This document shows positions 21,653-42,375 of a stretch of 64,000 bases of DNA, piece by piece; the stretch's first letter is position 1; the number at the start of each line of letters is the position of its first letter. A model generated the notes under the pieces. That model saw only the letters and a program-made list of their open reading frames with translations, searched no databases and was not told where the DNA came from. Both the position numbers and the translations under genes were made by a program. The DNA is taken from positions 1 through 64,000 of the forward strand of contig NZ_JAFMPR010000011.1 of the NCBI RefSeq assembly GCF_020667835.1, read 5' to 3'. This stretch comes from Roseibaca sp. Y0-43 (lineage in GTDB: Bacteria; Pseudomonadota; Alphaproteobacteria; Rhodobacterales; Rhodobacteraceae).

Positions 21653-21772
21653 GCCCGCAGGATAGGCGCAGCGCGGCTTGCCAACAAGCCAAAATAGACA
21701 GCGCTGAACGAATACTTGACACAACTGAACATTTTACGGTTTGCTGCCCCAAACCCTTGCGGAGCCAGCGCC
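21653..21772. promoter_or_regulatory. Divergent promoter/operator region of the TetR gene and demethylation module
   Basis: This 120-base gap between divergent starts is less GC-rich than its flanks. It holds the palindrome CAGCGCTG near 21699-21706 and a perfect TTGACA at 21716-21721 reading toward the demethylation genes; no good -10 hexamer is seen at ideal spacing. A TetR operator would be expected here. Ribosome binding for the downstream gene is GGAG eight bases before ATG 21773. Confidence 0.4.
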
Positions 21773-23809
21773 ATGTCGACCGACCCCCTTCTCCAGCCCT
21801 ACCGCCTGAAGCACCTGACGCTGAAAAACCGGCTGATGATTTCCAGCCATGAACCCGCCTACCCCGAAGACGGGATGCCGAAGGACCGCTACCGCGCCTA
21901 CCATGTCGAGCGCGCCCGCGCGGGCGTGGGGCTGACCATGACGGCGGGGTCGGCCAGCGTGGCGCGCGACAGCCCGCCCGTGTTCAACAACATTCTGGCG
22001 TGGAAGGACGAGGTCGTCGGCTGGATGCGAAAGCTCGCCGATGAATGCCATGACCACGGCTGCGCGGTGATGATTCAACTCACCCATCTGGGCCGCCGCA
22101 CGCGCTGGGACAAGGCGGATTGGTTGCCTGTGGTGTCGCCCGGACACGAACGCGAACCGTCGCACAAGGCGTTCCCGAAAAAGGCCGAGGATTGGGACAT
22201 CGCCCGCATTATCGAGGATTACGCCGATGCCGCCGAGCGGATGCAGGCGGCGGGGCTGGACGGGATCGAATTGCAGGCCTATGGCCACCTGATGGACCAG
22301 TTCTGGTCGCCTTTGACCAACGATCTGGACGGCCCTTATGGCGGCAGCCTCGACAATCGCCAGCGGTTCACATTTGACACGCTGCGCGCCATCCGCGACC
22401 GCTGCGGGCCGGATTTCATCGTCGGCGTGCGCTACACGGGCGACGAAGACCTGCCCGGTGGCCTGACCCGCGACGACGGGTTGGAAATCTCGCGCCGGCT
22501 GAAAGACAGCGGCATGGTCGATTTCCTGAACGTGGTCAAAGGCCATATCGACACCGATGCGGGCCTGACCGATGTGATCCCGGTGCAGGGAATGCGCAGC
22601 GCGCCGCATCTGGATTTCGCGGGCGACATTCGCGCGGCCACGCAATTCCCCACCTTTCATGCCGCGAAAATTCAGGATGTGGCGACCGCGCGCCACGCCA
22701 TTGCCAGCGGCAAGCTGGACATGGTCGGCATGACCCGCGCGCATATGGCCGACCCGCATATCGTGGCGAAAATCCAGCGCGGCGAGGAAGACCGCATCCG
22801 CCCCTGCGTGGGCGCGAATTACTGTCTGGACCGCATCTATCAGGGCGGCATGGCGCTATGCCTGCACAACCCCGCCACAGGCCGCGAATTGGAGCAGCCG
22901 CATGTGGTGCCGAAAGCCGACTTGCCTCGCCGGGTGGTGGTCGTGGGCGCTGGTCCCGCCGGGCTGGAAGCCGCGCGCGTGGCGGCAGAGCGCGGGCATG
23001 ACGTGACGGTGTTCGAGGCTGCGAATGATCCCGGCGGCCAAGTGCGCCTGACCGCGCAAACGCCGCGCCGGGCAGAGATGATGCAGCTTGTCCAATGGCG
23101 GCAGATGGAATGCGAACGCCTTGGCGTGCGCTTCCGGTTCAACAGTTATGCCGATGCCGACATGGTGCAGGCCGAAAGCCCCGATGTCGTTGTCATCGCC
23201 ACGGGCGGATTGCCGCATACCGATGTGCTGGCTGCCGGGAATGAGCTGGTCGTTTCTGCTTGGGACATTCTGGCGGGCGACGTGGCCCCCGGCGAGAATG
23301 TGCTCATCTATGACGATGCGGGCGACTACCCGGCGCTGCAAGCGGCGGAAAAGATCGCCGCGACCGGTGCCAAGGTCGAAGTCATGACCCGCGACCGCAC
23401 CATTGTGCCAGAGGTGATGGCCATGTCGCTCACACCGTCCATGCGCATTTTGCAAGGGCTGGACGTGACCTTCACCGTCGCGTGGAAGCTGGAGGCCGTC
23501 GCCCGCGATGGCAACCACCTGCTGGCCCGGATCGGTAGCGATTACGGCGGTGTTGCGCGCGAGCGGCGGGTCGATCAGGTCGTCGTCAACCACGGCACGC
23601 GGCCCTTGGATGACCTGTATTTCGACCTGCGGCCCCTGTCGGTGAACCAAGGAGAGGTCGATTACGAAGCCCTCGTCGCAGGCACCCCGCAACAGGTTCA
23701 AAGGAACCCAGATGGCGCGTTCCAATTGTTCCGCATTGGCGATGCGGTCTCGGCCCGCAACACCCATGCCGCGATCTATGACGCGCTACGCCTGTGCAAG
23801 GCGATCTGA
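21773..23809 (+). CDS. OYE-type N-demethylase (DgcA / N-methylproline demethylase family)
   Basis: A 678-residue two-part flavoprotein. Residues 1-370 form an Old-Yellow-Enzyme-like FMN barrel (LKHLTLKNRLMIS, VMIQLTHLGRRTRW, FWSPLTNDLDGPYGGSLDNRQRF, DMVGMTRAHMADPHIVAKI). A Cys cluster follows (RPCVGANYCLDRIYQGGMALCLHN) that would bind a 4Fe-4S centre, then an FAD/NAD(P) domain (RVVVVGAGPAGLEAARVAAERGHDV). The ending NTHAAIYDALRLCKAI is typical of the dimethylglycine demethylase DgcA and of N-methylproline demethylase HpbA. With the Rieske oxygenase next to it, it should remove a second methyl group after the betaine is opened; dimethylglycine and N-methylproline are both plausible substrates. 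No DgcB gene is adjacent. Confidence 0.8.
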   Translation: MSTDPLLQPYRLKHLTLKNRLMISSHEPAYPEDGMPKDRYRAYHVERARAGVGLTMTAGSASVARDSPPVFNNILAWKDEVVGWMRKLADECHDHGCAVMIQLTHLGRRTRWDKADWLPVVSPGHEREPSHKAFPKKAEDWDIARIIEDYADAAERMQAAGLDGIELQAYGHLMDQFWSPLTNDLDGPYGGSLDNRQRFTFDTLRAIRDRCGPDFIVGVRYTGDEDLPGGLTRDDGLEISRRLKDSGMVDFLNVVKGHIDTDAGLTDVIPVQGMRSAPHLDFAGDIRAATQFPTFHAAKIQDVATARHAIASGKLDMVGMTRAHMADPHIVAKIQRGEEDRIRPCVGANYCLDRIYQGGMALCLHNPATGRELEQPHVVPKADLPRRVVVVGAGPAGLEAARVAAERGHDVTVFEAANDPGGQVRLTAQTPRRAEMMQLVQWRQMECERLGVRFRFNSYADADMVQAESPDVVVIATGGLPHTDVLAAGNELVVSAWDILAGDVAPGENVLIYDDAGDYPALQAAEKIAATGAKVEVMTRDRTIVPEVMAMSLTPSMRILQGLDVTFTVAWKLEAVARDGNHLLARIGSDYGGVARERRVDQVVVNHGTRPLDDLYFDLRPLSVNQGEVDYEALVAGTPQQVQRNPDGAFQLFRIGDAVSARNTHAAIYDALRLCKAI

Positions 23810-25159
<1,350 letters not shown>

Positions 25160-25164
25160 CGCCC

Positions 25165-26238
25165 ATGATCCCCATGCCGACCAAGGACAGCCCTGTCTGG
25201 TCCGACAGTGAAATGCTGGAATGCGTGGCGATCCTGCCAGAAGCGCCGGGGGTCAAGACCTTCGCCTTTCGTCCGCCCTCGGGGGCGATGTTCGTCTACC
25301 GCGCGGGACAATTCCTGACGCTGGACCTGCCGGTGCCGGGCGGCAATGTGCAGCGGACCTTCACGATCTCGTCCTCGCCCGTGACGGCGGCCTATGTGAC
25401 CATCACCGCCAAGGTTCAGCCGGGGTCGGTGGGCACGGCCTGGATGCATGAGCATCTGCAAGTGGGGATGCGCCTGCGCGCTTACGGGCCTGCGGGGCTA
25501 TTCCACCTGCCGCCGCAGCCCGATGGGAAATACCTGTTCATCTCGGCAGGCTCGGGTGTGACGCCGATGATGTCTATGGCGACCACGCTGTTCGAGCGCG
25601 GCGAAGACCCCGATATCTGCTTCATTCAATGCGCGCGGCGGCCCAGCGATCTGATCTTTCGACGGCGGCTGGAATACATGGCCTCGCGCGTGTCGGGGCT
25701 GGCCTTGCATTTCGTCGTCAGCCGCCCCGAACCCTACGAGGTCTGGACCGGTTATCGCGGGCAGTTCAACCAGTTGATGCTGGGGCTGATGTGCAACGAC
25801 TACCTGGACCGCGACGTGTTTTGCTGCGGGCCGGAAGGGTTCATGGACGCGGTTCGCGAGATCCTGATCTCGCTGGGCTATGACATGTCGCGCTACCATC
25901 AGGAATCCTTCCACGCGCCCGCCGAAACCGTGGCCGAGATCACCGAATTCGACGACCCGGTGCCCGATGACAGCGCGCCCGCGCAGATCGTGTTCGCCCG
26001 CTCTGGCGTGACGGCAGACTGCACCGAGGGCGACACGATCATGGAAATCGCTCGCGCCAGTGGTCTGGCGGTGGCGTCGGGCTGCAATTTCGGCCTGTGC
26101 GGCACCTGCAAAACCCGCAAATTGTCGGGCGAGGTGCATATGGTCCATAACGGCGGCATTACCGAGGACGATATAGAGGCAGGCTACATCCTGCCCTGCT
26201 GCTCGAAACCGATTGGACGGGTTGAGGTTGAGGCATGA
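25165..26238 (+). CDS. Hybrid FAD/NAD(P)-2Fe-2S reductase component (GbcB-like)
   Basis: A 357-residue electron-transfer protein for the Rieske oxygenase five bases upstream. An FNR-type FAD domain (RAGQFLTLDLPVPGGNVQRTFTISSSP) and NAD domain (LFISAGSGVTPMMSM, CCGPEGFMDAV) precede a C-terminal plant-type ferredoxin whose Cys ligands are in GCNFGLCGTCKTRK and LPCCSK. This order (reductase then ferredoxin) is that of GbcB and related betaine-oxygenase reductases. The stop is followed within two bases by a ParB-box palindrome. Confidence 0.85.
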   Translation: MIPMPTKDSPVWSDSEMLECVAILPEAPGVKTFAFRPPSGAMFVYRAGQFLTLDLPVPGGNVQRTFTISSSPVTAAYVTITAKVQPGSVGTAWMHEHLQVGMRLRAYGPAGLFHLPPQPDGKYLFISAGSGVTPMMSMATTLFERGEDPDICFIQCARRPSDLIFRRRLEYMASRVSGLALHFVVSRPEPYEVWTGYRGQFNQLMLGLMCNDYLDRDVFCCGPEGFMDAVREILISLGYDMSRYHQESFHAPAETVAEITEFDDPVPDDSAPAQIVFARSGVTADCTEGDTIMEIARASGLAVASGCNFGLCGTCKTRKLSGEVHMVHNGGITEDDIEAGYILPCCSKPIGRVEVEA

Positions 26239-34370: not shown

Positions 34371-35777
34371 TTAGCTTGCATAGCGCGTGGCCCCGCGCCG
34401 CCGGGCATCGACCGGCTTGGACAGCACCACGGCGTTATGCGCGCGCTGATCGCACCCCACGCGCGGGCATGTCCGGCAGTTGATGCCGATGGGCACGGGC
34501 CGCGTCTGGCTGGCGCGCAGGCTTTCGGCATAGCCGATCTGGCCCGCGTGATCGACATCGCAGCCCATGGCGACGGCCAGGCGCACATCGGTTGCAGGGC
34601 GTGACAGGCTGGGGCGGTCCACGGTGCGGGCAAAAACGAAGAACTGGCTGCGATCGGGCATTTCCACGAATTGCGGCACGATCTGCCCCGGCGTGCGGAA
34701 CGAGGTATGCACATCCAGCCTTGGGCACGCGCCGCCATATTCGGCCAGATGGAAATCGGTCGCGTTGAAGCGCTTGGTCACGTTTCCGGCCTTGTCGATG
34801 CGCACGAAGAAGAATGGCACCCCCTGCGCGCCCGCGCGCTGCAAGGTGGTGGCGCGGTGGCACGCCTGCTCAAAACTGACGCCAAAGCGCGTGGCCAGAT
34901 GCGCGAAATCGTATTTCGACCCCAGCGCTTCGGTCAGAAAGGCGCTATAGGGCATCAGCACGGCGGCGGCGAAGTAATTGGTCAGTTCCACCCGGCAGCG
35001 CGCCAGCCCATGCGGGTCGGTGATGCGCGATTGCGACAGAAGCTTGTCCAGCAGGTCGGCATGTTCGATCAGCCCGGCCACATGAACAAGCTGGAAGACG
35101 CGGTTGGGATAGTCTAGCGCCTCTGACAGGCGTACCTCGCGCGTAACCTCGTCGTAATCGCGCAGGGTGTCGGGCATCTCTGCAATCGTGACCAGCCGGA
35201 CATGCAGGCCCAACCGGTCGCGCAGCAGCGCCTTCAGGGCGCTATAGGTGTCATCGGGCGCGACCTGTTTGCCGCCCCAGAAGGTGGCAGCAGCCGATTC
35301 GAGCACCGCGAAGTGATTCTGGTTGCGCCGGAAAAAGTTGTGGACGGCGGCTTCGGGCGAACTTGGCAGCACGTCGCCCGCATTCGTGCCGCTGGTCGCT
35401 AGCGCCATGAGTTGATCTGTCGCAGCCTGATAGGCGCGGTGCAGCGTCAGGAAAGACGCCACAAGGTCGGGACTGTGGATTTGCGCCGCGCGCAGTTGCG
35501 GCAAATCGGGGCGGTCGGCGTCGAACAGGTTGTCATGCAGCGCGGCGCGCAGGTCGGTCAGGGTGGCGGTGTCGTCATCTTCGGCAATGTCGCGCCATTC
35601 CACGCCATAGGTTTCGAATATCTTCAGCAATACCGGAACGGAAACCGATCTTTCGTTCTTTTCCAACAGGTTGACATAAGAGGTCGAAATTCCCAGCGCC
35701 CGCGCCATCTGGGCCTGCGTCTGTCCATGGTCCTGTCGCAACCGGCGCAAACGGGGGCCGATGAAGGTTTTTAGCAT
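34371..35777 (-). CDS. ScfR-family (short-chain fatty acyl-CoA) XRE-type regulator
   Basis: A 468-residue regulator with an N-terminal XRE helix-turn-helix (GPRLRRLRQDHGQTQAQMARALGISTSYVNLLEKNERSVSV), a large central domain of the ImmA/IrrE-like type, and a Cys-containing C-terminus (INCRTCPRVGCDQRA). This architecture is that of the RamB/PccR/MccR proteins, which sense acyl-CoAs such as propionyl-CoA. It is divergent from the malyl-CoA operon and four TGTAAA-type half-sites lie between them. I use ATG 35777; starting at 35801 would place the coding region over one operator half-site. The bound acyl-CoA is not known. Confidence 0.82.
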   Translation of the reverse strand: MLKTFIGPRLRRLRQDHGQTQAQMARALGISTSYVNLLEKNERSVSVPVLLKIFETYGVEWRDIAEDDDTATLTDLRAALHDNLFDADRPDLPQLRAAQIHSPDLVASFLTLHRAYQAATDQLMALATSGTNAGDVLPSSPEAAVHNFFRRNQNHFAVLESAAATFWGGKQVAPDDTYSALKALLRDRLGLHVRLVTIAEMPDTLRDYDEVTREVRLSEALDYPNRVFQLVHVAGLIEHADLLDKLLSQSRITDPHGLARCRVELTNYFAAAVLMPYSAFLTEALGSKYDFAHLATRFGVSFEQACHRATTLQRAGAQGVPFFFVRIDKAGNVTKRFNATDFHLAEYGGACPRLDVHTSFRTPGQIVPQFVEMPDRSQFFVFARTVDRPSLSRPATDVRLAVAMGCDVDHAGQIGYAESLRASQTRPVPIGINCRTCPRVGCDQRAHNAVVLSKPVDARRRGATRYAS

Positions 35778-35789
35778 ACCTTTGTATCC

Positions 35790-35842
35790 TGTAAAATTCA
35801 CATATTTACAAAATTTATATCATGTAAATCTTCGCATTTACA
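35790..35842. promoter_or_regulatory. Paired TGTAAA-N8/9-TTTACA operators between the ScfR gene and the malyl-CoA operon
   Basis: Half-sites TGTAAA (35790-35795), TTTACA (35805-35810), TGTAAA (35823-35828) and TTTACA (35837-35842) form two inverted repeats with spacers of 9 and 8 bases, in a distinctly AT-rich island. The first lies 13 bases upstream of the regulator ATG, the last 77 bases upstream of the aminotransferase ATG. The placement fits autoregulation plus control of the operon by the divergent ScfR-type protein. Confidence 0.65.
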
Positions 35843-35918
35843 GCAGGACGCGGAAAGAATTCACGATCCTGATTTTGTGCCGCATGGTTGTGTCATCGCG
35901 TTTGGGAGGACGCCTGCC

Positions 35919-37136
35919 ATGACCATCGGACAACGCCACCTGTTTTGCCCTGGCCCCACGCCCATTCCCGAAATGGTGCGCCGCGCCATGAATGTGCCCG
36001 CCGAAGACCACCGCGCCCCCGGCTTTGGTGATCTGGGCCGCGATATCGCCCAAGGCCTGCGCCAGATCATGCGCATGGAGGGCGGGCAGATGTTCCTCTT
36101 CCCCGGTTCCGGCACCGCCGCGTGGGAAGCCGCGATCACCAATACGCTCTCGCCCGGCGACCGGGTTCTGATGGCACGTCACGGCCATTTCTCGGAACTT
36201 TGGGCGCAGATGGCGGTTCGCCTTGGGCTGGATGTCGAGTTGATCGACGTCGCTTGGGGCGCGGGCATTCCGGTCAAGGAAATCGAGCGCCGCCTGGGTG
36301 CCGACAAGGATGACCGCATCAAGGCCGTCTTTGTCACGCATAACGAAACCGCGACCGGCGTCACCTCTGACGTGGCTGCCGTGCGCCGCGCGCTGGACAT
36401 GAATTTCCATGACGCGCTTCTGTTCGTGGATGGCGTGTCGTCCATCGGCTCTATCGAGTTTCGGATGGCCGACTGGGGCGTGGACCTTGCTGTCACCGGC
36501 AGCCAGAAAGGGCTGATGTGCCCGGCTGGCGTGGGTATCTTGGGCGTCAGCGACAAGGCTATGGAAGCTGCGAAACACGCCACCATGCGCCGCGCCTATT
36601 TCGAATTTGCCGACATGGTCCGCCTGCAAGCGGATGGGCACTTCCCCTATACGCCCCCCATTCCGCTGCTGCATGGAATGCGCGCGGCGGTCGATCTGCT
36701 GCTGGCCGAGGGCATGGATAACGTCATCGCACGTCATGCCCGCATGGCTGGCGGTGTGCGTGCCGCCGTTCAGGCCTGGGGGCTGGAGATGGTCGCCGAG
36801 CATGAAACGCTTTTCTCTGACACCGTGACCGCCATTCGCACGCCCATGCATATCGACGCGCGCGAGGTCATTTCCATCGCCCATGACGAACTCGGCGCCT
36901 CTTTCGGCGGTGGCTTGGGCCGTTTGGCGGGCCGGGTGTTCCGCATCGGGCATCTGGGCTGGGTGAATGAGGGCACCTTGGCCGGGGCGCTGTCGATGGC
37001 CGAAATGGCCATGTGGCGCGCGGGTATGGATATCGAACTGGGCGCGGGTCTTGCGAGCGCTCAACGCTATTGGTCCGACGGCAAGCGTCGCGACCGTCCG
37101 CGGGTCGTGGAAAGCACCCCGATCGCGGCTCAATAA
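35919..37136 (+). CDS. Class V aminotransferase: serine/aspartate-glyoxylate aminotransferase
   Basis: A 405-residue PLP enzyme of the alanine-glyoxylate/serine-glyoxylate group. Active-site features are the N-terminal HLFCPGPTPIP, FPGSGTAAWEAAI, VTHNETATGVTS, VDGVSSIG and the PLP Lys197 in GSQKGLM. It resembles SgaA of the serine cycle and BhcA of the beta-hydroxyaspartate cycle; the lack of other bhc genes and the adjoining malyl-CoA genes favour a glyoxylate aminotransferase that controls the fate of glyoxylate. GGGAGGA lies eight bases before ATG 35919. First gene of the operon. Confidence 0.82.
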   Translation: MTIGQRHLFCPGPTPIPEMVRRAMNVPAEDHRAPGFGDLGRDIAQGLRQIMRMEGGQMFLFPGSGTAAWEAAITNTLSPGDRVLMARHGHFSELWAQMAVRLGLDVELIDVAWGAGIPVKEIERRLGADKDDRIKAVFVTHNETATGVTSDVAAVRRALDMNFHDALLFVDGVSSIGSIEFRMADWGVDLAVTGSQKGLMCPAGVGILGVSDKAMEAAKHATMRRAYFEFADMVRLQADGHFPYTPPIPLLHGMRAAVDLLLAEGMDNVIARHARMAGGVRAAVQAWGLEMVAEHETLFSDTVTAIRTPMHIDAREVISIAHDELGASFGGGLGRLAGRVFRIGHLGWVNEGTLAGALSMAEMAMWRAGMDIELGAGLASAQRYWSDGKRRDRPRVVESTPIAAQ

Positions 37137-37159
37137 CATAACTCTGAAAGGGACATAGA

Positions 37160-38101
37160 ATGTCACACACACTGCACCCGCTTCGGCGGCAACGGCTGCA
37201 TCGTTCCGAACTGGCGGTGCCTGCGTCCAATATCGACATGGTGGTGAAAGCCGCTGACAGCGACGCCGATGTGGTGTTCCTGGACCTGGAAGACGCGGTC
37301 GCCCCGCCCGAGAAAGAGCAGGCGCGCAAGAACGCGGTCAAGCTGCTGAACGAAATCGACTGGGCGGCCAAGGGCAAGACCGTGTCGGTGCGTATCAACG
37401 GTCTGGACACGCATTACATGTATCGCGACGTGGTCGATATCATGGAACAGGCAGGCGACCGGGTGCACACGCTGCTGGTGCCCAAGGTCGGCGTTCCGGC
37501 TGACCTGTATATGGTCGAAGCCATGGTCAACCAGATCGAACAGGGTCGTGGCCTGAAGACCCGCGTGGGTCTGGAAGCGCTGATCGAAACCGCGCTGGGC
37601 ATGGCAAATGTCGAAGCCATCGCGCAATTCGGTGGCCGTCTGGAATGCCTGCATTTCGGCGTGGCCGATTACGCGGCGTCCATGCGCGCCCGCACCACCA
37701 ATATCGGCGGTCTGAATCCCGATTATCCGGGCGACCAGTGGCACGCCTCGATCACCCGCATGGTCGTGGCCTGCCGCGCCTATGGTCTGCGCGCGGTCGA
37801 TGGGCCGTTCGGCGATTTCTCGGATCCCGAGGGCTACAAGGCTGGCGCGCGCCGCGCGGCCGCACTGGGCTGCGAAGGCAAATGGGCCATTCACCCCAGC
37901 CAGATCGCGCTGGCGAACGAGGTGTTCAGCCCGCCCGAGGCCGAAGTCACCAAGGCGCACCGTATCATCGAAGAGCTGAAGAAAGCCGAAGCCGCAGGCA
38001 AAGGCGCCGCGTCGCTCGATGGCAAGATGATCGACGCAGCCTCCGAGAAGATGGCCCGCAACCTGATCGAGGTTGCCGAACAAATCGCAGCCCGTGGCTA
38101 A
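37160..38101 (+). CDS. mclA: Malyl-CoA / beta-methylmalyl-CoA lyase (MclA-like)
   Basis: A 313-residue Mg2+-dependent lyase of the HpcH/CitE family. Visible blocks: RLHRSELAVPASN, VVFLDLEDAVAPPEKEQARKN, VRINGLDTHYMYRDVVDI, LEALIETALGMANVEAIA, GVADYAASMRARTTNIGG, DGPFGDFSDPEGYKAGARR and KWAIHPSQIALANEVF. It is closer in these motifs to the serine-cycle MclA than to the typical Rhodobacter Mcl1. It cleaves malyl-CoA to acetyl-CoA plus glyoxylate and, in related enzymes, condenses glyoxylate with propionyl-CoA and cleaves citramalyl-CoA. It precedes mtkA by 22 bases. Confidence 0.88.
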   Translation: MSHTLHPLRRQRLHRSELAVPASNIDMVVKAADSDADVVFLDLEDAVAPPEKEQARKNAVKLLNEIDWAAKGKTVSVRINGLDTHYMYRDVVDIMEQAGDRVHTLLVPKVGVPADLYMVEAMVNQIEQGRGLKTRVGLEALIETALGMANVEAIAQFGGRLECLHFGVADYAASMRARTTNIGGLNPDYPGDQWHASITRMVVACRAYGLRAVDGPFGDFSDPEGYKAGARRAAALGCEGKWAIHPSQIALANEVFSPPEAEVTKAHRIIEELKKAEAAGKGAASLDGKMIDAASEKMARNLIEVAEQIAARG

Positions 38102-38123
38102 GCCCTGAGAGGGAGGAGAGACA

Positions 38124-39296
38124 ATGGATATTCATGAACATCAGGCCAAGGACATTCTGGCCAAATTCGGTGTCCCCGTGCCGCGTGGCGGTCTGGCCTA
38201 TTCGCCCGAACAGGCGGCCTACCAAGCGCGCGAAATCGGCCTGCCCGTGGTCATCAAGGCGCAAATCCACTCGGGTGGGCGCGGCGAAGCGGGCGGCGTG
38301 AAATTCTGCCGCACCGATGAAGAGGTGCGTGAATTCGCCGCCAACATCCTTGGCCGCCAGCTTGTGACCAAGCAAAGCGGTCCGGCGGGCAAGGGCGTCT
38401 ATCGGCTGTGGGTCGAAGCCGCGACCGATATCGCGCAGGAAGTCTACCTCGGCTTCGTTCTGGACCGGAAATCCGAGCGTATCATGATCGTGGCCTCTGC
38501 CGCGGGCGGGATGGAGATCGAGGATCTGGCCGAAAACGACCCTGACAGCCTTGTGCGCATGATTGTCGACCCGGCCACCGGCCTGTGCGACTTCGAGGCG
38601 CGCGAGCTGGCCTTCCGTCTGGGCTTGACCGGCAACCAGATCGGCCAGATGGTCAATACCCTGCGCGCCTGCTACCGCGCCTACCGCGATCTGGACGCGA
38701 CCATGGTCGAGATCAACCCGCTGGCCATCACCGGCTCGGGCGATCTGGTGGCGCTGGATGCGAAGATGAGCTTCGACACCAACGCCATGTTCCGCCGCCC
38801 CGAAGTGGCCGCCCTGCGCGACCTGAGCCAGGAAGACCCGCGCGAGGCGATGGCGGCAGGCTCTGGCCTGTCTTATATCGGCCTTGACGGTGACATCGGT
38901 TGCATCATCAACGGTGCGGGCCTCGCCATGGCCACGATGGACATGATCAAGCTTGCAGGGGCCGAACCCGCCAACTTCCTCGACATCGGCGGTGGTGCCA
39001 GCGCCGAGCGCGTCGTGACCGCGTTCCGTACGGTTCTGACCGACCCGAATGTCAGCGTGATCCTTGTGAACATCTTCGCAGGCATCAACCGCTGCGACTG
39101 GATCGCGGCAGGCGTCGTCCAGGCCTACAAGGAAGTCGGCATGACCATTCCCGTGGTGGTTCGCCTGGCGGGCACCAATGTCGAAGAAGGCCGCCGCATT
39201 CTTGAGACCGCCGATGTTCCGATCATCACCGCAGGCACCCTGGCTGAGGCCGCCGAGGCCGCCGTCAAGGCGCGCCCCAACGCTGCCGCTGCATAA
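38124..39296 (+). CDS. mtkA: Malate-CoA ligase beta subunit (MtkA-like)
   Basis: A 390-residue ATP-grasp subunit of the succinyl-CoA synthetase superfamily ([91 protein letters not shown]). The details [26 protein letters not shown] and the coupling to malyl-CoA lyase point to malate thiokinase rather than SucC. It activates malate (and perhaps succinate) with CoA and ATP. A sucCD pair would be expected beside the 2-oxoglutarate dehydrogenase genes, which are absent. Confidence 0.82.
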
Positions 39297-39311
39297 GAAA
39301 GGACTACCAGA

Positions 39312-40208
39312 ATGGCTATCCTGATTACTCCAGAAACCAAGATCATCGTGCAGGGCATCTCTGGCCGCATCGGTCAGTTCCACGCGCAGGAAATGATCGA
39401 AACCGGCACCAATGTCGTGGGCGGCGTAACGCCGGGTCGCGGCGGCACCACGGTGCTGGGCAAGCCCGTGTTCAACACCGTGCGCGAAGCGGTCGAGGCG
39501 ACCGGCGCCGATGCGTCGCTCATGTTCGTGCCCCCGCCCGTTGCCGCCGATGCAATGATGGAAGCGGCGGATGCAGGCATCCGCGTGGCCGTCAGCGTGG
39601 CGGATGGTATCCCCGCGCAAGACATGATGAAGGTCAAACGCTTCCTGCGCCGCTACAAGGCCGACCGCAAGATGCGCCTGATCGGGCCGAACTGCGCGGG
39701 CGTCATCAGCCCCGGCATCGGGTTCATGGGCATCATGCCGCCGCATATCTACATGCCGGGCCGCGTGGGCATCGTGGGCCGTTCGGGCACGCTGGGCTAT
39801 GAAGCCGCCAGCCAGATGAAGGCGCTGGGCATCGGCGTCTCGACCTCGGTCGGCATCGGCGGCGACCCGATCAACGGCTCCAGCTTCAGGGATATTCTTG
39901 AACTGTTCGAGAATGACCCCGACACCGATGCCGTGATGATGATCGGCGAAATCGGTGGCCCACAGGAAGCCGAAGCCGCCGAATATATCCGCGATCACAT
40001 GACCAAACCGGTCGCGGCCTATATCGCCGGTCTATCCGCTCCCAAGGGCCGGAAGATGGGCCATGCTGGCGCAATCATCTCTGCCTTTGGGGAAAGTGCG
40101 CAGGAAAAGGTTGTCATCCTTCAGGAAGCCGGCATCAAGGTCGCGCCGAACCCGTCCTCCATGGGGGCGACGGTGGCAGAGATTCTTGGCAAAAAGGCTG
40201 CTGCATAA
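39312..40208 (+). CDS. mtkB: Malate-CoA ligase alpha subunit (MtkB-like)
   Basis: A 298-residue CoA-binding subunit. The phosphorylated His is His251 in [32 protein letters not shown] and [15 protein letters not shown] are the CoA-binding and core blocks. The [33 protein letters not shown] stretch is characteristic of MtkB-type proteins and differs from ordinary SucD. With MtkA it makes malyl-CoA for the lyase encoded upstream. Its TAA overlaps the ATG of the next gene (TAATG). Confidence 0.82.
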
Positions 40209-41086
40209 TGCACCCCGAAGGGTATGAAACCAAGGACGTGGCCGACCCCCAAGCATGGGTCGGCCGCGTGGAAGAACACGAAGGCGCGCTGACGCCAAAT
40301 CTGGCCGGCATGATGGGCGCGACGCTCTCGCACGCATCGGCCCCGGCACATGATCTGCGCATCGGCGCGCCGCTGCCACCCTTGTGGCACTGGATCGCCT
40401 TCCCCGAATTCGTGCCGCTTGCCGAATTGGGCACGGATGGCCACCCGGCACTCGGGGGCTTTCTGCCGCCCTTGCCCTATCCGCGCCGCATGTGGGCGGG
40501 GGGCAATCTGGAATGGACGGGGGCGCTGGAAGTGGGCGAAACCCTGCACCGCCGCTCGGAAATTCTGGCCGTGACGGAAAAGCAGGGCACGACCGGGTCC
40601 ATGTATTTCGTCCGCGTGGGCCATGACCTGCATGGCAAGGCCGGGTCCATCCGCGAAGAACAGGACATCGTCTATCTGGACATGCCCGACGAATTCCGCC
40701 CGCCCCGCGCCATTCCCGCGCCCGACGCGCCCGATTTCCGAGAAGTGGTGCCCATGAACGAAGCGCGGCTGTTCCGCTTTTCCGCCGTGACCTTCAACGC
40801 GCACCGCATTCATTACGACATGCCCTATGCCCGCGAGGTCGAGAAATACCCGGCCCTGATCGTGCACGGGCCGATGCAGGCCTGCCTGCTGATGGAAGCC
40901 GCCTGCCGCCATACCCGGCAGACCCCCAAACGCTTCCGCTTCAAAGGAGTGCACCCGATGTTCCACATCGAAGACATGGCCGCCGTGGGCCAGATGGACC
41001 GAGGAGCACCCGCCGTGGACCTGTGCAGCGTTGCCGCCACCTCGAACCACCAGTGTATGCAGGCCCGGATGGAGTGGTCCGCATGA
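40208..41086 (+). CDS. meh: Mesaconyl-C4-CoA hydratase (Meh-like, MaoC/HTD2 family)
   Basis: A 292-residue double-hotdog hydratase. The N-terminal half is FAS1-like (WHWIAFPEFVPLAELGTDGHP, GGFLPPLPYPRRMWAGGNLEW) and the C-terminal half carries the putative catalytic block FNAHRIHYDMPYAREVEKYPALIVHGPMQA. Members of this family include the Chloroflexus enzyme that hydrates mesaconyl-C4-CoA to citramalyl-CoA. Direct coupling to the transferase gene at 41083 (ATGA) matches that pathway. Other HTD2-family members act on different enoyl-CoAs, so substrate is inferred from context. Confidence 0.78.
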   Translation: MHPEGYETKDVADPQAWVGRVEEHEGALTPNLAGMMGATLSHASAPAHDLRIGAPLPPLWHWIAFPEFVPLAELGTDGHPALGGFLPPLPYPRRMWAGGNLEWTGALEVGETLHRRSEILAVTEKQGTTGSMYFVRVGHDLHGKAGSIREEQDIVYLDMPDEFRPPRAIPAPDAPDFREVVPMNEARLFRFSAVTFNAHRIHYDMPYAREVEKYPALIVHGPMQACLLMEAACRHTRQTPKRFRFKGVHPMFHIEDMAAVGQMDRGAPAVDLCSVAATSNHQCMQARMEWSA

Positions 41087-42303
41087 GCGGCATCCTGAAG
41101 GGAATGCGCGTGGTCGAAGGCTCTGCCTTCGTCGCCGTGCCGCTGGCGGGCATGACGCTGGCGCAGATGGGGGCCGATGTCATCCGCTTCGACCGTGTCG
41201 AAGGGGGCTTGGATGCAGGCCGCTGGCCCGTGGCCAAATCCGGCGCCAGCATGTTCTGGGCGGGTATGAACAAGGGCAAACGCTCGATCGCGATCGACAT
41301 GAAACACCCGCGCGGGCGCGAGATCATCTCGGAACTGATCTGCGCACCGGGCGAGGATGCGGGCCTTTTCATCACCAACCTGCGCGTCAAGGGCTGGATG
41401 GATTACGAAACCCTCTCGGCCCGCCGCCCCGACCTGTGCATGGTCACATTGACCGGCGACCGCGCAGGCCGCCCGGCGGTGGATTACACCGTCAACCCGG
41501 CGCTGGGCTTTCCCATGGCCACCGGGCCAGAGGGCTCGACCGAACCGGTCGCCCATGCGCTGCCCGCATGGGATTGCATCGCGGGCAACATGGTCGTCTC
41601 GGCGCTTCTGGCGGCAGAGCGCAAGCGCCTGCGCCATGGCCATGGCTCTGCGGTCGATCTTGCGCTCAAGGATGTCGCCGCCGCCATGCTCGGCCATCTG
41701 GGTGTGATTGGCGAAGTCGAGGTCAACGGCATCTCGCGCCCGAAATCCGGCAACGCGCTCTACGGCGCTTACGGACAGGATTTTATCTGCGCCGACGGCA
41801 ACCGCGTCATGGTCATCGGCCTGACCGACAACCAGTGGCGCGGCTTGCAGAAAGTGACCGGCACGACCGAGGCGATAGCTGCGCTGGAAACCCAACTCGG
41901 CACCTCGCTCAAGGGCGAAGGCGCGCGCTGGGAACATCGCCACGCGATCACCGACGTGCTGCGCCCCTTCTTCGCCACGCGCCGCGTTGCCGATTTCGCC
42001 GAAGCGTTTGAAAAGGCGGGCGTCACCTGGTCGCAATTCCGCGACTTCAAACAGGCGGTGGCAGAGGACGAGGACATGTCCCTCGACAACCCGATGTTCA
42101 CCATGCTCGACCAGCCCGGCATCGGCCGCTACCGCGTGCCCGGCACGCCCATGTCCTTCAGCCACGACCCGCGCGAAGCCCCACGCCGCGCGCCCGTCCT
42201 TGGGGAGCATACCGAGGCGATCTTGGGCGATGTCCTGTGCCTGCCCGACAGTGAAATCGCCTCCCTCTTCGACGAAGGCGTGGTGAAGCAGGGCAAGCCC
42301 TGA
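41083..42303 (+). CDS. mct: Mesaconyl-CoA C1-C4 CoA transferase (Mct-like, family III)
   Basis: A 406-residue class III CoA transferase. The N-terminal VVEGSAFVAVPLAGMTLAQMGADVIRFD, FWAGMNKGKRSIAID and the C-terminal LDQPGIGRYRVPGTPMSFS fit the family closely, and Asp164 in LPAWDCIAG is the likely catalytic carboxylate. In Chloroflexus the homologous enzyme moves CoA intramolecularly from C1 to C4 of mesaconate (2-methylfumaryl-CoA isomerase). Last gene of the operon; a double hairpin follows. Substrate is inferred from sequence resemblance and from the meh neighbour. Confidence 0.78.
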   Translation: MSGILKGMRVVEGSAFVAVPLAGMTLAQMGADVIRFDRVEGGLDAGRWPVAKSGASMFWAGMNKGKRSIAIDMKHPRGREIISELICAPGEDAGLFITNLRVKGWMDYETLSARRPDLCMVTLTGDRAGRPAVDYTVNPALGFPMATGPEGSTEPVAHALPAWDCIAGNMVVSALLAAERKRLRHGHGSAVDLALKDVAAAMLGHLGVIGEVEVNGISRPKSGNALYGAYGQDFICADGNRVMVIGLTDNQWRGLQKVTGTTEAIAALETQLGTSLKGEGARWEHRHAITDVLRPFFATRRVADFAEAFEKAGVTWSQFRDFKQAVAEDEDMSLDNPMFTMLDQPGIGRYRVPGTPMSFSHDPREAPRRAPVLGEHTEAILGDVLCLPDSEIASLFDEGVVKQGKP

Positions 42304-42335: not shown

Positions 42336-42375
42336 GTCCGACCCCGACACGGGGTCGGACGGGGGCAAAGCCCCC
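42336..42375 (+). terminator. Tandem hairpins after the malyl-CoA operon (possible repeat element)
   Basis: Arms 42336-42345 (GTCCGACCCC) and 42351-42360 (GGGGTCGGAC) form a 10-bp stem with a five-base loop; right behind it GGGGGC (42361-42366) pairs with GCCCCC (42370-42375) around AAA. The block is preceded by AAATATCCTGGGGG. Very similar intergenic blocks are common in Rhodobacterales genomes, so it may be both a terminator and a dispersed repeat. Confidence 0.6.

What the first reader, a model, noticed from the sequence alone, without database searches (positions are those of the whole stretch)
34371..42303. Operon joining serine-cycle malate activation with the glyoxylate-assimilating half of the 3-hydroxypropionate bicycle
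Six co-oriented, tightly spaced genes encode a glyoxylate aminotransferase, a MclA-type malyl-CoA lyase, malate-CoA ligase beta/alpha, a Meh-type hydratase and an Mct-type CoA transferase. Gaps are 23, 22 and 15 bases and then two overlaps. In Chloroflexus, meh and mct belong to glyoxylate plus propionyl-CoA to pyruvate plus acetyl-CoA, with malate activated by a succinyl-CoA:malate CoA transferase. Here malate thiokinase would replace that transferase, and the aminotransferase gives a branch from glyoxylate to glycine. The predicted net route is malate plus propionyl-CoA to two acetyl-CoA and pyruvate. The mesaconyl-C1-CoA hydratase (mch) is not in the operon. I know of no described Rhodobacterales system with exactly this set, but I could not search.
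Basis: partly seen in the sequence, partly recalled or inferred. Interest (0 to 1): 0.78.

Follow-up and report, generated by a model that had tools for sequence, protein, structure and literature searches.

The report
Operon turning mesaconyl-CoA into pyruvate
A seven-gene locus in a photosynthetic bacterium of the Roseibaca group appears to join the malate-splitting part of the serine cycle to two enzymes that would turn an intermediate of acetate metabolism directly into pyruvate, a route that I found described only as an artificial carbon-saving design.

Summary
The operon is real. After start-site correction it is a divergent ScfR-type regulator (34371-35777, -) and sga-mclA-mtkA-mtkB-meh-mct (35919-42303, +). 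Mct keeps the catalytic residues of the intramolecular mesaconyl-CoA transferase. The seven-gene order recurs in 34 of 113 distinct mct loci. A 22-base operator-like box occurs in 34 of 34 of these, in 6 of 6 loci where the regulator faces meh-mct directly, and once in the window's genome. The first four genes match a serine-cycle-type cluster of Aminobacter, with hpr-gck replaced by meh-mct. The simplest reading: meh-mct drains mesaconyl-C1-CoA, from the ethylmalonyl-CoA pathway or from propionyl-CoA plus glyoxylate, to pyruvate and acetyl-CoA. Run from acetate the net is acetyl-CoA + HCO3- + 2 NADPH + UQ to pyruvate. Activities and direction are inferred.

The parts
34371..35777 (-). ScfR-family (short-chain fatty acyl-CoA) transcriptional regulator, RamB-like, divergent; probable start ATG at 35777
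   Evidence: PF09856 ScfRs 192 bits, PF06114, HTH; RamB model 347 bits, below its cut-off of 700
35823..35844 (+). Conserved operator-like box TGTAAATCTTCGCATTTACAGC between regulator and sga; a second TTTACA-rich stretch lies just 5' of it (by eye)
   Evidence: Only site in the window's genome at 3 or fewer mismatches, control 0; in 34/34 full operons, 6/6 regulator-meh-mct loci, 1/61 meh-mct-only loci; sequences
35919..37136 (+). sga: class V aminotransferase, serine/aspartate:glyoxylate type (probable start 35919)
   Evidence: BhcA model 542 bits, below 650; 56% identical and syntenic with the Aminobacter pAA01 copy
37160..38101 (+). mclA: malyl-CoA lyase of the 5UGR/Aminobacter type
   Evidence: 5UGR 394 bits; 77% identical to the Aminobacter CoA ester lyase
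38124..39296 (+). mtkA: malate-CoA ligase beta subunit
   Evidence: NF010647 661 bits over cut-off 604; own SucC is separate, C50, 538 bits, below cut-off
39312..40208 (+). mtkB: malate-CoA ligase alpha subunit
   Evidence: NF004230 417 bits; 70% identical and syntenic with the Aminobacter alpha subunit
40208..41086 (+). meh: MaoC/hotdog hydratase, mesaconyl-C4-CoA hydratase candidate
   Evidence: 8HUC and 8KHG (itaconyl-CoA hydratase) 194 bits; H199, I201, H202 and D204 kept in 126/126 homologues found
41083..42303 (+). [quoted passage not shown]
   Evidence: 7XKG 510 bits, 8APQ 495 bits; L43, R47, N99, D134, Y135, D164 correspond to Chloroflexus L43, R47, N100, D135, Y136, D165
42336..42360 (.). 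Inverted repeat GTCCGACCCCG-ACA-CGGGGTCGGAC behind mct, possible terminator
   Evidence: read by eye from the sequence; not scored by a tool

Best explanation
A regulated two-module operon. Module 2 (Meh, Mct, with a malyl/citramalyl-CoA lyase) takes mesaconyl-C1-CoA out of the ethylmalonyl-CoA pathway: Mct moves CoA from C1 to C4, Meh hydrates mesaconyl-C4-CoA to (S)-citramalyl-CoA, and MclA or Mcl1 cleaves it to pyruvate and acetyl-CoA. Starting from acetyl-CoA the net is acetyl-CoA + HCO3- + 2 NADPH + UQ to pyruvate, without a C4 intermediate or a decarboxylation. The same enzymes can take propionyl-CoA plus glyoxylate through Mcl1 and Mch run backwards. Module 1 (MtkAB, MclA, Sga) is the malate-splitting part of the serine cycle: malate + ATP + CoA to malyl-CoA to acetyl-CoA + glyoxylate, with transamination of glyoxylate to glycine. 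The ScfR regulator is predicted to sense a CoA ester and to act at one operator. Shown: gene content, homology, diagnostic residues, recurrence, conservation of the box, presence of ccr, mch and mcl1. Inferred: every activity, the direction, MclA or Mcl1 acting on citramalyl-CoA, the regulator's ligand and its binding to the box.
For: Mct has the pocket residues of the intramolecular transferase. ccr, mch and Mcl1 (599 bits to 4L9Y) are in the same genome. All 54 mct genomes of 390 have a CCR. In 18 of 51 genomes mct occurs without a malate-CoA ligase beta over the cut-off. Meh-mct is followed by a lyase in 5 of 79 named loci (copies 58-100% identical to the L070 copy); the L070 copy is nearest to 8KHL, an acyl-CoA lyase (192 bits). 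mch is in 1 of the 134 neighbourhoods fetched from other genomes, and that one is a Rubrivivax MAG, so in the Rhodobacterales Mch must come from elsewhere, as in the window's genome. The same regulator and box go with meh-mct with and without module 1. Module 1 is syntenic with Aminobacter sga-mclA-mtkA-mtkB-hpr-gck. Trees of the two modules disagree: one clade of operon copies is rejected for Mct+Meh (AU p 4e-59); in four loci Mct nests among stand-alone copies while their mcl-mtkAB group with other operons (SH-aLRT 99), so meh-mct was probably exchanged or recruited again at the same place. R. sphaeroides MCL forms citramalyl-CoA (PMC3832036, passages). Itaconyl-CoA hydratase also hydrates mesaconyl-C4-CoA (PMC12290011, passages). 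P. denitrificans RamB binds CoA esters of the ethylmalonyl-CoA pathway (PMC10370305, abstract and sections 5 and 7).
Against: No activity is measured. CCR is in 370 of 390 genomes, so its presence in all 54 mct genomes is weak (about 0.05 by simple arithmetic). Meh is nearest to itaconyl-CoA hydratases, and no Chloroflexus Meh was at hand to compare. Mct scores 526 against a cut-off of 725 in NCBIfam, and the CoA-clamping R75, F101 and R104 of Chloroflexus are K, L and K here. MclA and Mcl1 are nearest to malyl-CoA lyases; in R. sphaeroides MCL the citramalyl-CoA reaction was seen in the direction of synthesis with pyruvate in 200-fold excess (PMC3832036). ecm, mcd, epi and pcc were not looked for; the two neighbours of ccr that I identified are an acyltransferase and an RNase. 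One operon (L132, L051) has no meh in it. One stand-alone pair lies beside a propionate-CoA-ligase-like gene (L063), which favours the propionyl-CoA input.
Confidence: 0.55

Rival explanations
1. One reading: MtkAB and Mcl make glyoxylate from malate; glyoxylate and propionyl-CoA are joined by Mcl and Mch run backwards and converted to pyruvate and acetyl-CoA. It serves propionate or glyoxylate assimilation, as the glyoxylate half of the 3-hydroxypropionate bi-cycle does.
For: The enzymes are encoded, mch unlinked and Mcl1 unlinked; a propionate-CoA-ligase-like gene follows meh-mct in L063; a partial bi-cycle is proposed for co-assimilation in Kentron (PMC6593406, passages).
Against: 18 of 51 genomes with a close mct have no malate-CoA ligase beta over the cut-off; net glyoxylate consumption runs against the ethylmalonyl-CoA pathway of the same cell. 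That mch is outside the operon fits both readings.
Confidence: 0.25
2. A serine-cycle operon for C1 units (for example from glycine betaine methyl groups), with meh-mct as an accessory exit for carbon made by the ethylmalonyl-CoA pathway.
For: Module 1 is syntenic with Aminobacter sga-mclA-mtkAB-hpr-gck; glycine betaine monooxygenase-like genes at 23909-26238; a DUF4147/MOFRL glycerate-kinase-like gene at C22.
Against: No PEP carboxylase match in the window's genome; no hpr-gck in the operon; sga not found in 3 of 37 loci with mcl-mtkAB-meh-mct.
Confidence: 0.12
3. Meh and Mct belong to itaconate, mesaconate or methylsuccinate breakdown rather than to a central pathway.
For: Meh is nearest to itaconyl-CoA hydratase; a Limimaricola plasmid carries a related hydratase (41%) with an acyl-CoA dehydrogenase, a CaiB/BaiF CoA transferase and a CoA ester lyase.
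Against: No itaconate CoA transferase in the operon; Mct keeps the intramolecular pocket residues, so it should not activate free acids well; malate thiokinase and the aminotransferase have no place in that pathway.
Confidence: 0.06

Closest known systems
Glyoxylate-assimilating half of the 3-hydroxypropionate bi-cycle (Chloroflexi; also Kentron, Thiosymbion, Accumulibacter and others named in PMC6593406)
   Same: Mct, a Meh-type hydratase, an Mcl and an Mch, giving pyruvate + acetyl-CoA from mesaconyl-C1-CoA
   Different: No succinyl-CoA:malate CoA transferase in the operon; malate thiokinase instead; mch unlinked; an ethylmalonyl-CoA pathway is expected to supply mesaconyl-C1-CoA; Rhodobacterales are not among the taxa named in the passages of PMC6593406 that I saw
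Serine-cycle-type cluster of Aminobacter aminovorans pAA01 (sga-mclA-mtkA-mtkB-hpr-gck)
   Same: First four genes in the same order, 56, 77, 68 and 70% identical
   Different: hpr-gck replaced by meh-mct; ScfR regulator and its box in front; no PEP carboxylase match in the genome
Artificial 'reductive citramalyl/ethylmalonyl-CoA pathway' (PMC10521678, passages)
   Same: Same reaction sequence and net equation, acetyl-CoA + HCO3- + 2 NADPH + UQ to pyruvate
   Different: There a paper design; here a predicted natural gene set with its own regulator
RamB/ScfR control of acetate metabolism in Paracoccus denitrificans (PMC10370305)
   Same: ScfR-family regulator divergent from the operon it faces; paired boxes; in Paracoccus, CoA esters of the ethylmalonyl-CoA pathway bind the regulator
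   Different: Other target genes; below the RamB cut-off (347 against 700 bits); the letters of the Paracoccus motif were not seen by me

Membership tests
Intramolecular mesaconyl-CoA transferase (Mct) | Catalytic Asp165 and carboxyl-binding Arg47 and Tyr136 | tested here: met
   D164, R47, Y135; the same letter in 128 of 128 homologues of 55% identity or more that cover the columns (129 such loci, named and unnamed sets overlapping)
Intramolecular mesaconyl-CoA transferase (Mct) | Leu or Ile at position 43 narrowing the tunnel | tested here: met
   L43 in the window; among 128 homologues L in 112 and M in 16
Intramolecular mesaconyl-CoA transferase (Mct) | Outer CoA clamp R75, F101, R104 | tested here: not met
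   K74, L100, K103 in the window; I74 and E133 (a backbone contact) were not counted
Intramolecular mesaconyl-CoA transferase (Mct) | NCBIfam TIGR04253 cut-off | tested here: not met
   526 bits against 725
Mesaconyl-C4-CoA hydratase (Meh) | Similarity to Chloroflexus Meh | not tested
   no Chloroflexus Meh sequence was at hand; nearest solved relative is itaconyl-CoA hydratase
Malate thiokinase | Beta subunit over the malate-CoA ligase cut-off, separate from SucC | tested here: met
   661 against 604; SucC at C50 538 bits
Malate thiokinase | Activity with malate rather than succinate | not testable with these tools
   needs an enzyme assay
3-hydroxypropionate bi-cycle, glyoxylate half | mch present in the genome | tested here: met
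   C22; 438 bits to 4E3E and 414 to 8HGN; Pfam MC_hydratase
3-hydroxypropionate bi-cycle, glyoxylate half | Succinyl-CoA:malate CoA transferase in the cluster | tested here: not met
   malate-CoA ligase in its place; the rest of the genome was not searched for it
Ethylmalonyl-CoA pathway | crotonyl-CoA carboxylase/reductase | tested here: met
   616 bits against 378.55 at C53
Ethylmalonyl-CoA pathway | Malyl-/beta-methylmalyl-CoA lyase of the R. sphaeroides type | tested here: met
   C33, 599 bits to 4L9Y
Ethylmalonyl-CoA pathway | ethylmalonyl-CoA mutase and methylsuccinyl-CoA dehydrogenase | not tested
   not searched for
Serine cycle | PEP carboxylase | tested here: not met
   no PF00311 match in the window's genome; 7 of 14 control genomes ring
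Serine cycle | sga-mclA-mtkAB and glycerate 2-kinase | tested here: met
   window; DUF4147/MOFRL gene at C22; NCBIfam glycerate 2-kinase models match it below their cut-offs
Beta-hydroxyaspartate cycle | Aminotransferase over the BhcA cut-off | tested here: not met
   542 against 650; bhcBCD not searched for
ScfR regulators | PF09856 C-terminal domain with N-terminal HTH | tested here: met
Citramalyl-CoA lyase | Operon lyase cleaves citramalyl-CoA | not testable with these tools
   nearest to malyl-CoA lyases

The most novel reading that the evidence does not exclude
[quoted passage not shown] In the operon-bearing phototrophs the malate arm could close it into a light-assisted cycle: pyruvate plus CO2 to malate (a pyruvate carboxylase, not searched for, would be needed), then MtkAB-Mcl back to acetyl-CoA plus glyoxylate, fixing two CO2 per glyoxylate without RuBisCO.
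Probability: 0.3. Interest if true: 0.86.

Novelty: new variant of a known kind. Interest (0 to 1): 0.68.

Why it matters
PMC11599936 (passages) says that the natural acetyl-CoA assimilation pathways it lists lead to C4 compounds that must lose CO2 to give pyruvate, apart from oxygen-sensitive pyruvate synthase, and builds a synthetic bypass for that reason. PMC10521678 (passages) designs the very sequence predicted here as an artificial module. A natural, regulated version, with mct in 51 of 390 sampled genomes of the order, would supply natural enzymes for carbon-saving engineering and change how carbon budgets of these bacteria are drawn. It is directly testable: from the known Ccr, Ecm, Mct and lyase chemistry (my derivation), pyruvate made this way from [1-13C]acetate carries label at both C1 and C2, and label from bicarbonate goes into the carboxyl of acetyl-CoA.

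Tried and rejected
Rejected: BhcA and the beta-hydroxyaspartate cycle (aminotransferase under the cut-off); PEP-carboxylase serine cycle; itaconate cluster (no itaconate CoA transferase in the operon, Mct residues).

Uninformative: isocitrate lyase PF00463 at E <= 1e-60 rang in 0 of 390 genomes of the order, although Paracoccus, which has a glyoxylate cycle (PMC10370305), belongs to this order as I recall; the model or threshold may miss the type found here, so I draw no conclusion. The mct-CCR association (54 of 54 against 370 of 390) is too weak to use alone. The Fisher tests compare mct with mtkA in 390 genomes and include the 22 genomes in which both are linked; without these, mct not linked to mtk goes with mtkA in 11 of 29 against 64 of 339 (p 0.03). 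RuBisCO: one PF00016 match, a RuBisCO-like protein (best NCBIfam model a DK-MTP-1-P enolase, under its cut-off).

Dropped rows: the tree leaves out L171, L176, L177, L179, L181 and L182 (long branches or not Rhodobacterales) and meh-mct-only loci with under 3 kb held upstream of meh; it compares 40 operon rows with 38 others. Some meh-mct-only loci lie on short contigs (for example L108, L126, L127, L153) and may be cut operons. Named and unnamed sets overlap; one search removed copies by mct sequence. The AU group was named after the first tree had been seen. The linked/not-linked sorting of the 51 genomes is my reading, typed into.

Papers: PMC8307300, PMC6593406, PMC3832036, PMC12290011, PMC11599936, PMC9889269, PMC10521678 and PMC8262859 seen as passages only; PMC10370305 abstract and sections 5 and 7; PMC9813914 passages and section 17; all others as search listings only. 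Statements that something is not in print rest on the searches (open-licence PMC only; one classic paper on co-assimilation in Chloroflexus, cited in PMC11599936, was not read). Recalled, from no call: that 8KHL is the citramalyl-CoA lyase of P. aeruginosa; that 5UGR is from Methylobacterium; that 4E3E is from Chloroflexus.

Full report
What is there. The window is part of contig C2 of a 3.03 Mb genome (99.9% complete) in the same genus as G257, whose contig has the length (73,264) and mct position of Roseibaca ekhonensis CECT 7235. Six + strand genes, sga-mclA-mtkA-mtkB-meh-mct, run from 35919 to 42303, behind a divergent ScfR-family regulator at 34371-35777. Family assignments are in the parts list. 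The weakest is Meh, whose nearest solved relatives are itaconyl-CoA hydratases (194 bits); such enzymes also hydrate mesaconyl-C4-CoA (PMC12290011, passages). The strongest functional argument is Mct: the residues that PMC9813914 names for catalysis and the acyl and pantetheine pocket (L43, R47, N100, D135, Y136, D165 in Chloroflexus numbering) are kept, while the outer CoA clamp (R75, F101, R104) is not.

Genome context. The same genome has crotonyl-CoA carboxylase/reductase (C53, 616 bits), mesaconyl-CoA hydratase Mch (C22, 438 bits to 4E3E) beside an HpcH lyase of unsettled specificity (135 bits to 4L9Y), Mcl1 (C33, 599 bits to the R. sphaeroides enzyme 4L9Y; 48% identical to the operon MclA), a separate SucC (C50), photosynthetic reaction-centre genes (C50), a glycerate-2-kinase-like gene, no PEP carboxylase match, and one RuBisCO-like protein as the only RuBisCO match. 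Mesaconyl-C1-CoA should therefore be present whenever the ethylmalonyl-CoA pathway runs; ecm and mcd were not checked.

Recurrence. Of 390 genomes of the order, the window's own included, 54 have an Mct at E <= 1e-60 and 51 a copy of 60% identity or more, one of them partial. By my reading, 22 of the 51 have it linked to mtk genes; in 29 the link was not seen, several of them at contig ends. Of these 29, 11 have a malate-CoA ligase beta over the cut-off elsewhere and 18 have none. In 79 named loci 27 show all seven genes in order, 31 meh-mct only, 6 the regulator facing meh-mct with none of the other genes between, 5 meh-mct with a CitE-like lyase, and 10 other or cut arrangements. After removal of copies, 34 of 113 loci have the seven-gene set. 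Named carriers include Mameliella, Sagittula, Antarctobacter, Maliponia, Roseinatronobacter, Natronohydrobacter and Roseibaca. mch is found in 1 of 134 neighbourhoods from other genomes, a Rubrivivax MAG.

Regulation. A box TGTRAANTYTYGCRTTYACAGC lies between regulator and first gene. At 4 or fewer mismatches it is in 34 of 34 full loci (reversed control 2), 6 of 6 regulator-meh-mct loci (control 0), 3 of 3 loci without sga, 1 of 1 without mcl, 1 of 1 without meh, 1 of 61 meh-mct-only loci (control 1), 0 of 4 loci showing mtkB-meh-mct only, 0 of 1 showing mtkA-mtkB-meh-mct only (these five may be cut by contig ends) and 0 of 2 with mct alone. In the window's genome it is found once at 3 or fewer mismatches, with no control match. 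This suggests one dedicated regulator for meh-mct whether or not the malate module is present; binding is not shown.

How the operon was put together. Aminobacter aminovorans pAA01 carries an aminotransferase, a CoA ester lyase, malate-CoA ligase beta, a ligase alpha, a D-glycerate dehydrogenase and a DUF4147 gene in a row, the first four with 56, 77, 68 and 70% identity to the window's. The window's operon has meh-mct in the place of the last two. In the Mct+Meh data one clade of operon copies is rejected (AU p 4e-59). In the Mct tree four loci (L088, L089, L090, L094) nest among stand-alone copies, while their mcl-mtkAB group with the Mameliella and Sagittula operons (SH-aLRT 99). Meh-mct was thus probably exchanged or recruited again at the same place, which speaks for a functional link. 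The group was named after the first tree had been seen, so the p-value is descriptive.

Mechanism. [quoted passage not shown] Because meh-mct occurs without malate thiokinase, and in a few loci with its own lyase (the L070 copy 192 bits to 8KHL), this conversion looks like the core. In the window MclA or Mcl1 would be the lyase; R. sphaeroides MCL forms citramalyl-CoA from acetyl-CoA and a large excess of pyruvate (PMC3832036, passages). With the ethylmalonyl-CoA pathway as source the net is acetyl-CoA + HCO3- + 2 NADPH + UQ to pyruvate. PMC10521678 gives exactly this equation for a designed 'reductive citramalyl/ethylmalonyl-CoA pathway' (passages). PMC11599936 describes the natural oxygen-tolerant routes as yielding C4 compounds that are then decarboxylated (passages). 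I found no report of a natural version in the searches, which cover open-licence papers only. The malate module would add glyoxylate and acetyl-CoA from malate, with Sga drawing glyoxylate to glycine.

Verdict. Enzyme identities are likely (about 0.85, my estimate); the direction and physiological role are open (0.55 for the ethylmalonyl-CoA exit, 0.25 for the propionyl-CoA plus glyoxylate route).

Noticed in passing
window 21716-26238: Glycine betaine demethylation genes: an OYE/FadH-type flavoenzyme and GbcA- and GbcB-like subunits (509 and 340 bits, below cut-offs of 670 and 500), about 10 kb from the operon; a possible C1 and glycine source.
   Followed up: partly
L132 5744-11209 and L051 (Rhodobacterales bacterium HKCCE3408): Operon with sga-mcl-mtkA-mtkB-mct and the box but no meh in it and no regulator match in front; whether meh lies elsewhere was not searched.
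   Followed up: no
L063 1499-7982: meh-mct between an NADP malic enzyme-like gene and a propionate-CoA-ligase-like gene (both under NCBIfam cut-offs), which links the pair to propionate and pyruvate metabolism.
   Followed up: partly
L054, L056, L064: Operons in which no sga was found but regulator, box and mcl-mtkAB-meh-mct are kept; the leader region was not examined for a remnant.
   Followed up: no
L193 4296-7206 (plasmid pAKD34) and L192 2267-7206 (Azospirillum brasilense p4): Mct-like CoA transferases of 50-51% identity beside or near an acyl-CoA dehydrogenase, one pair on an IncP plasmid near transposases; the substrate may differ.
   Followed up: no
L177 and L179 (Rhizobacter and Rubrivivax MAGs): Clusters with three Mct-family genes in a row (two of them only 22-24% identical to the window's), an opposing meh and an Mcl-like gene; L179 also has mch (56%) nearby.
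   Followed up: partly
L188 1501-3641 (G000 C52): A RuBisCO-like protein next to a gene like the C-terminal half of transketolase, in a genome with reaction-centre genes and no other RuBisCO match.
   Followed up: partly
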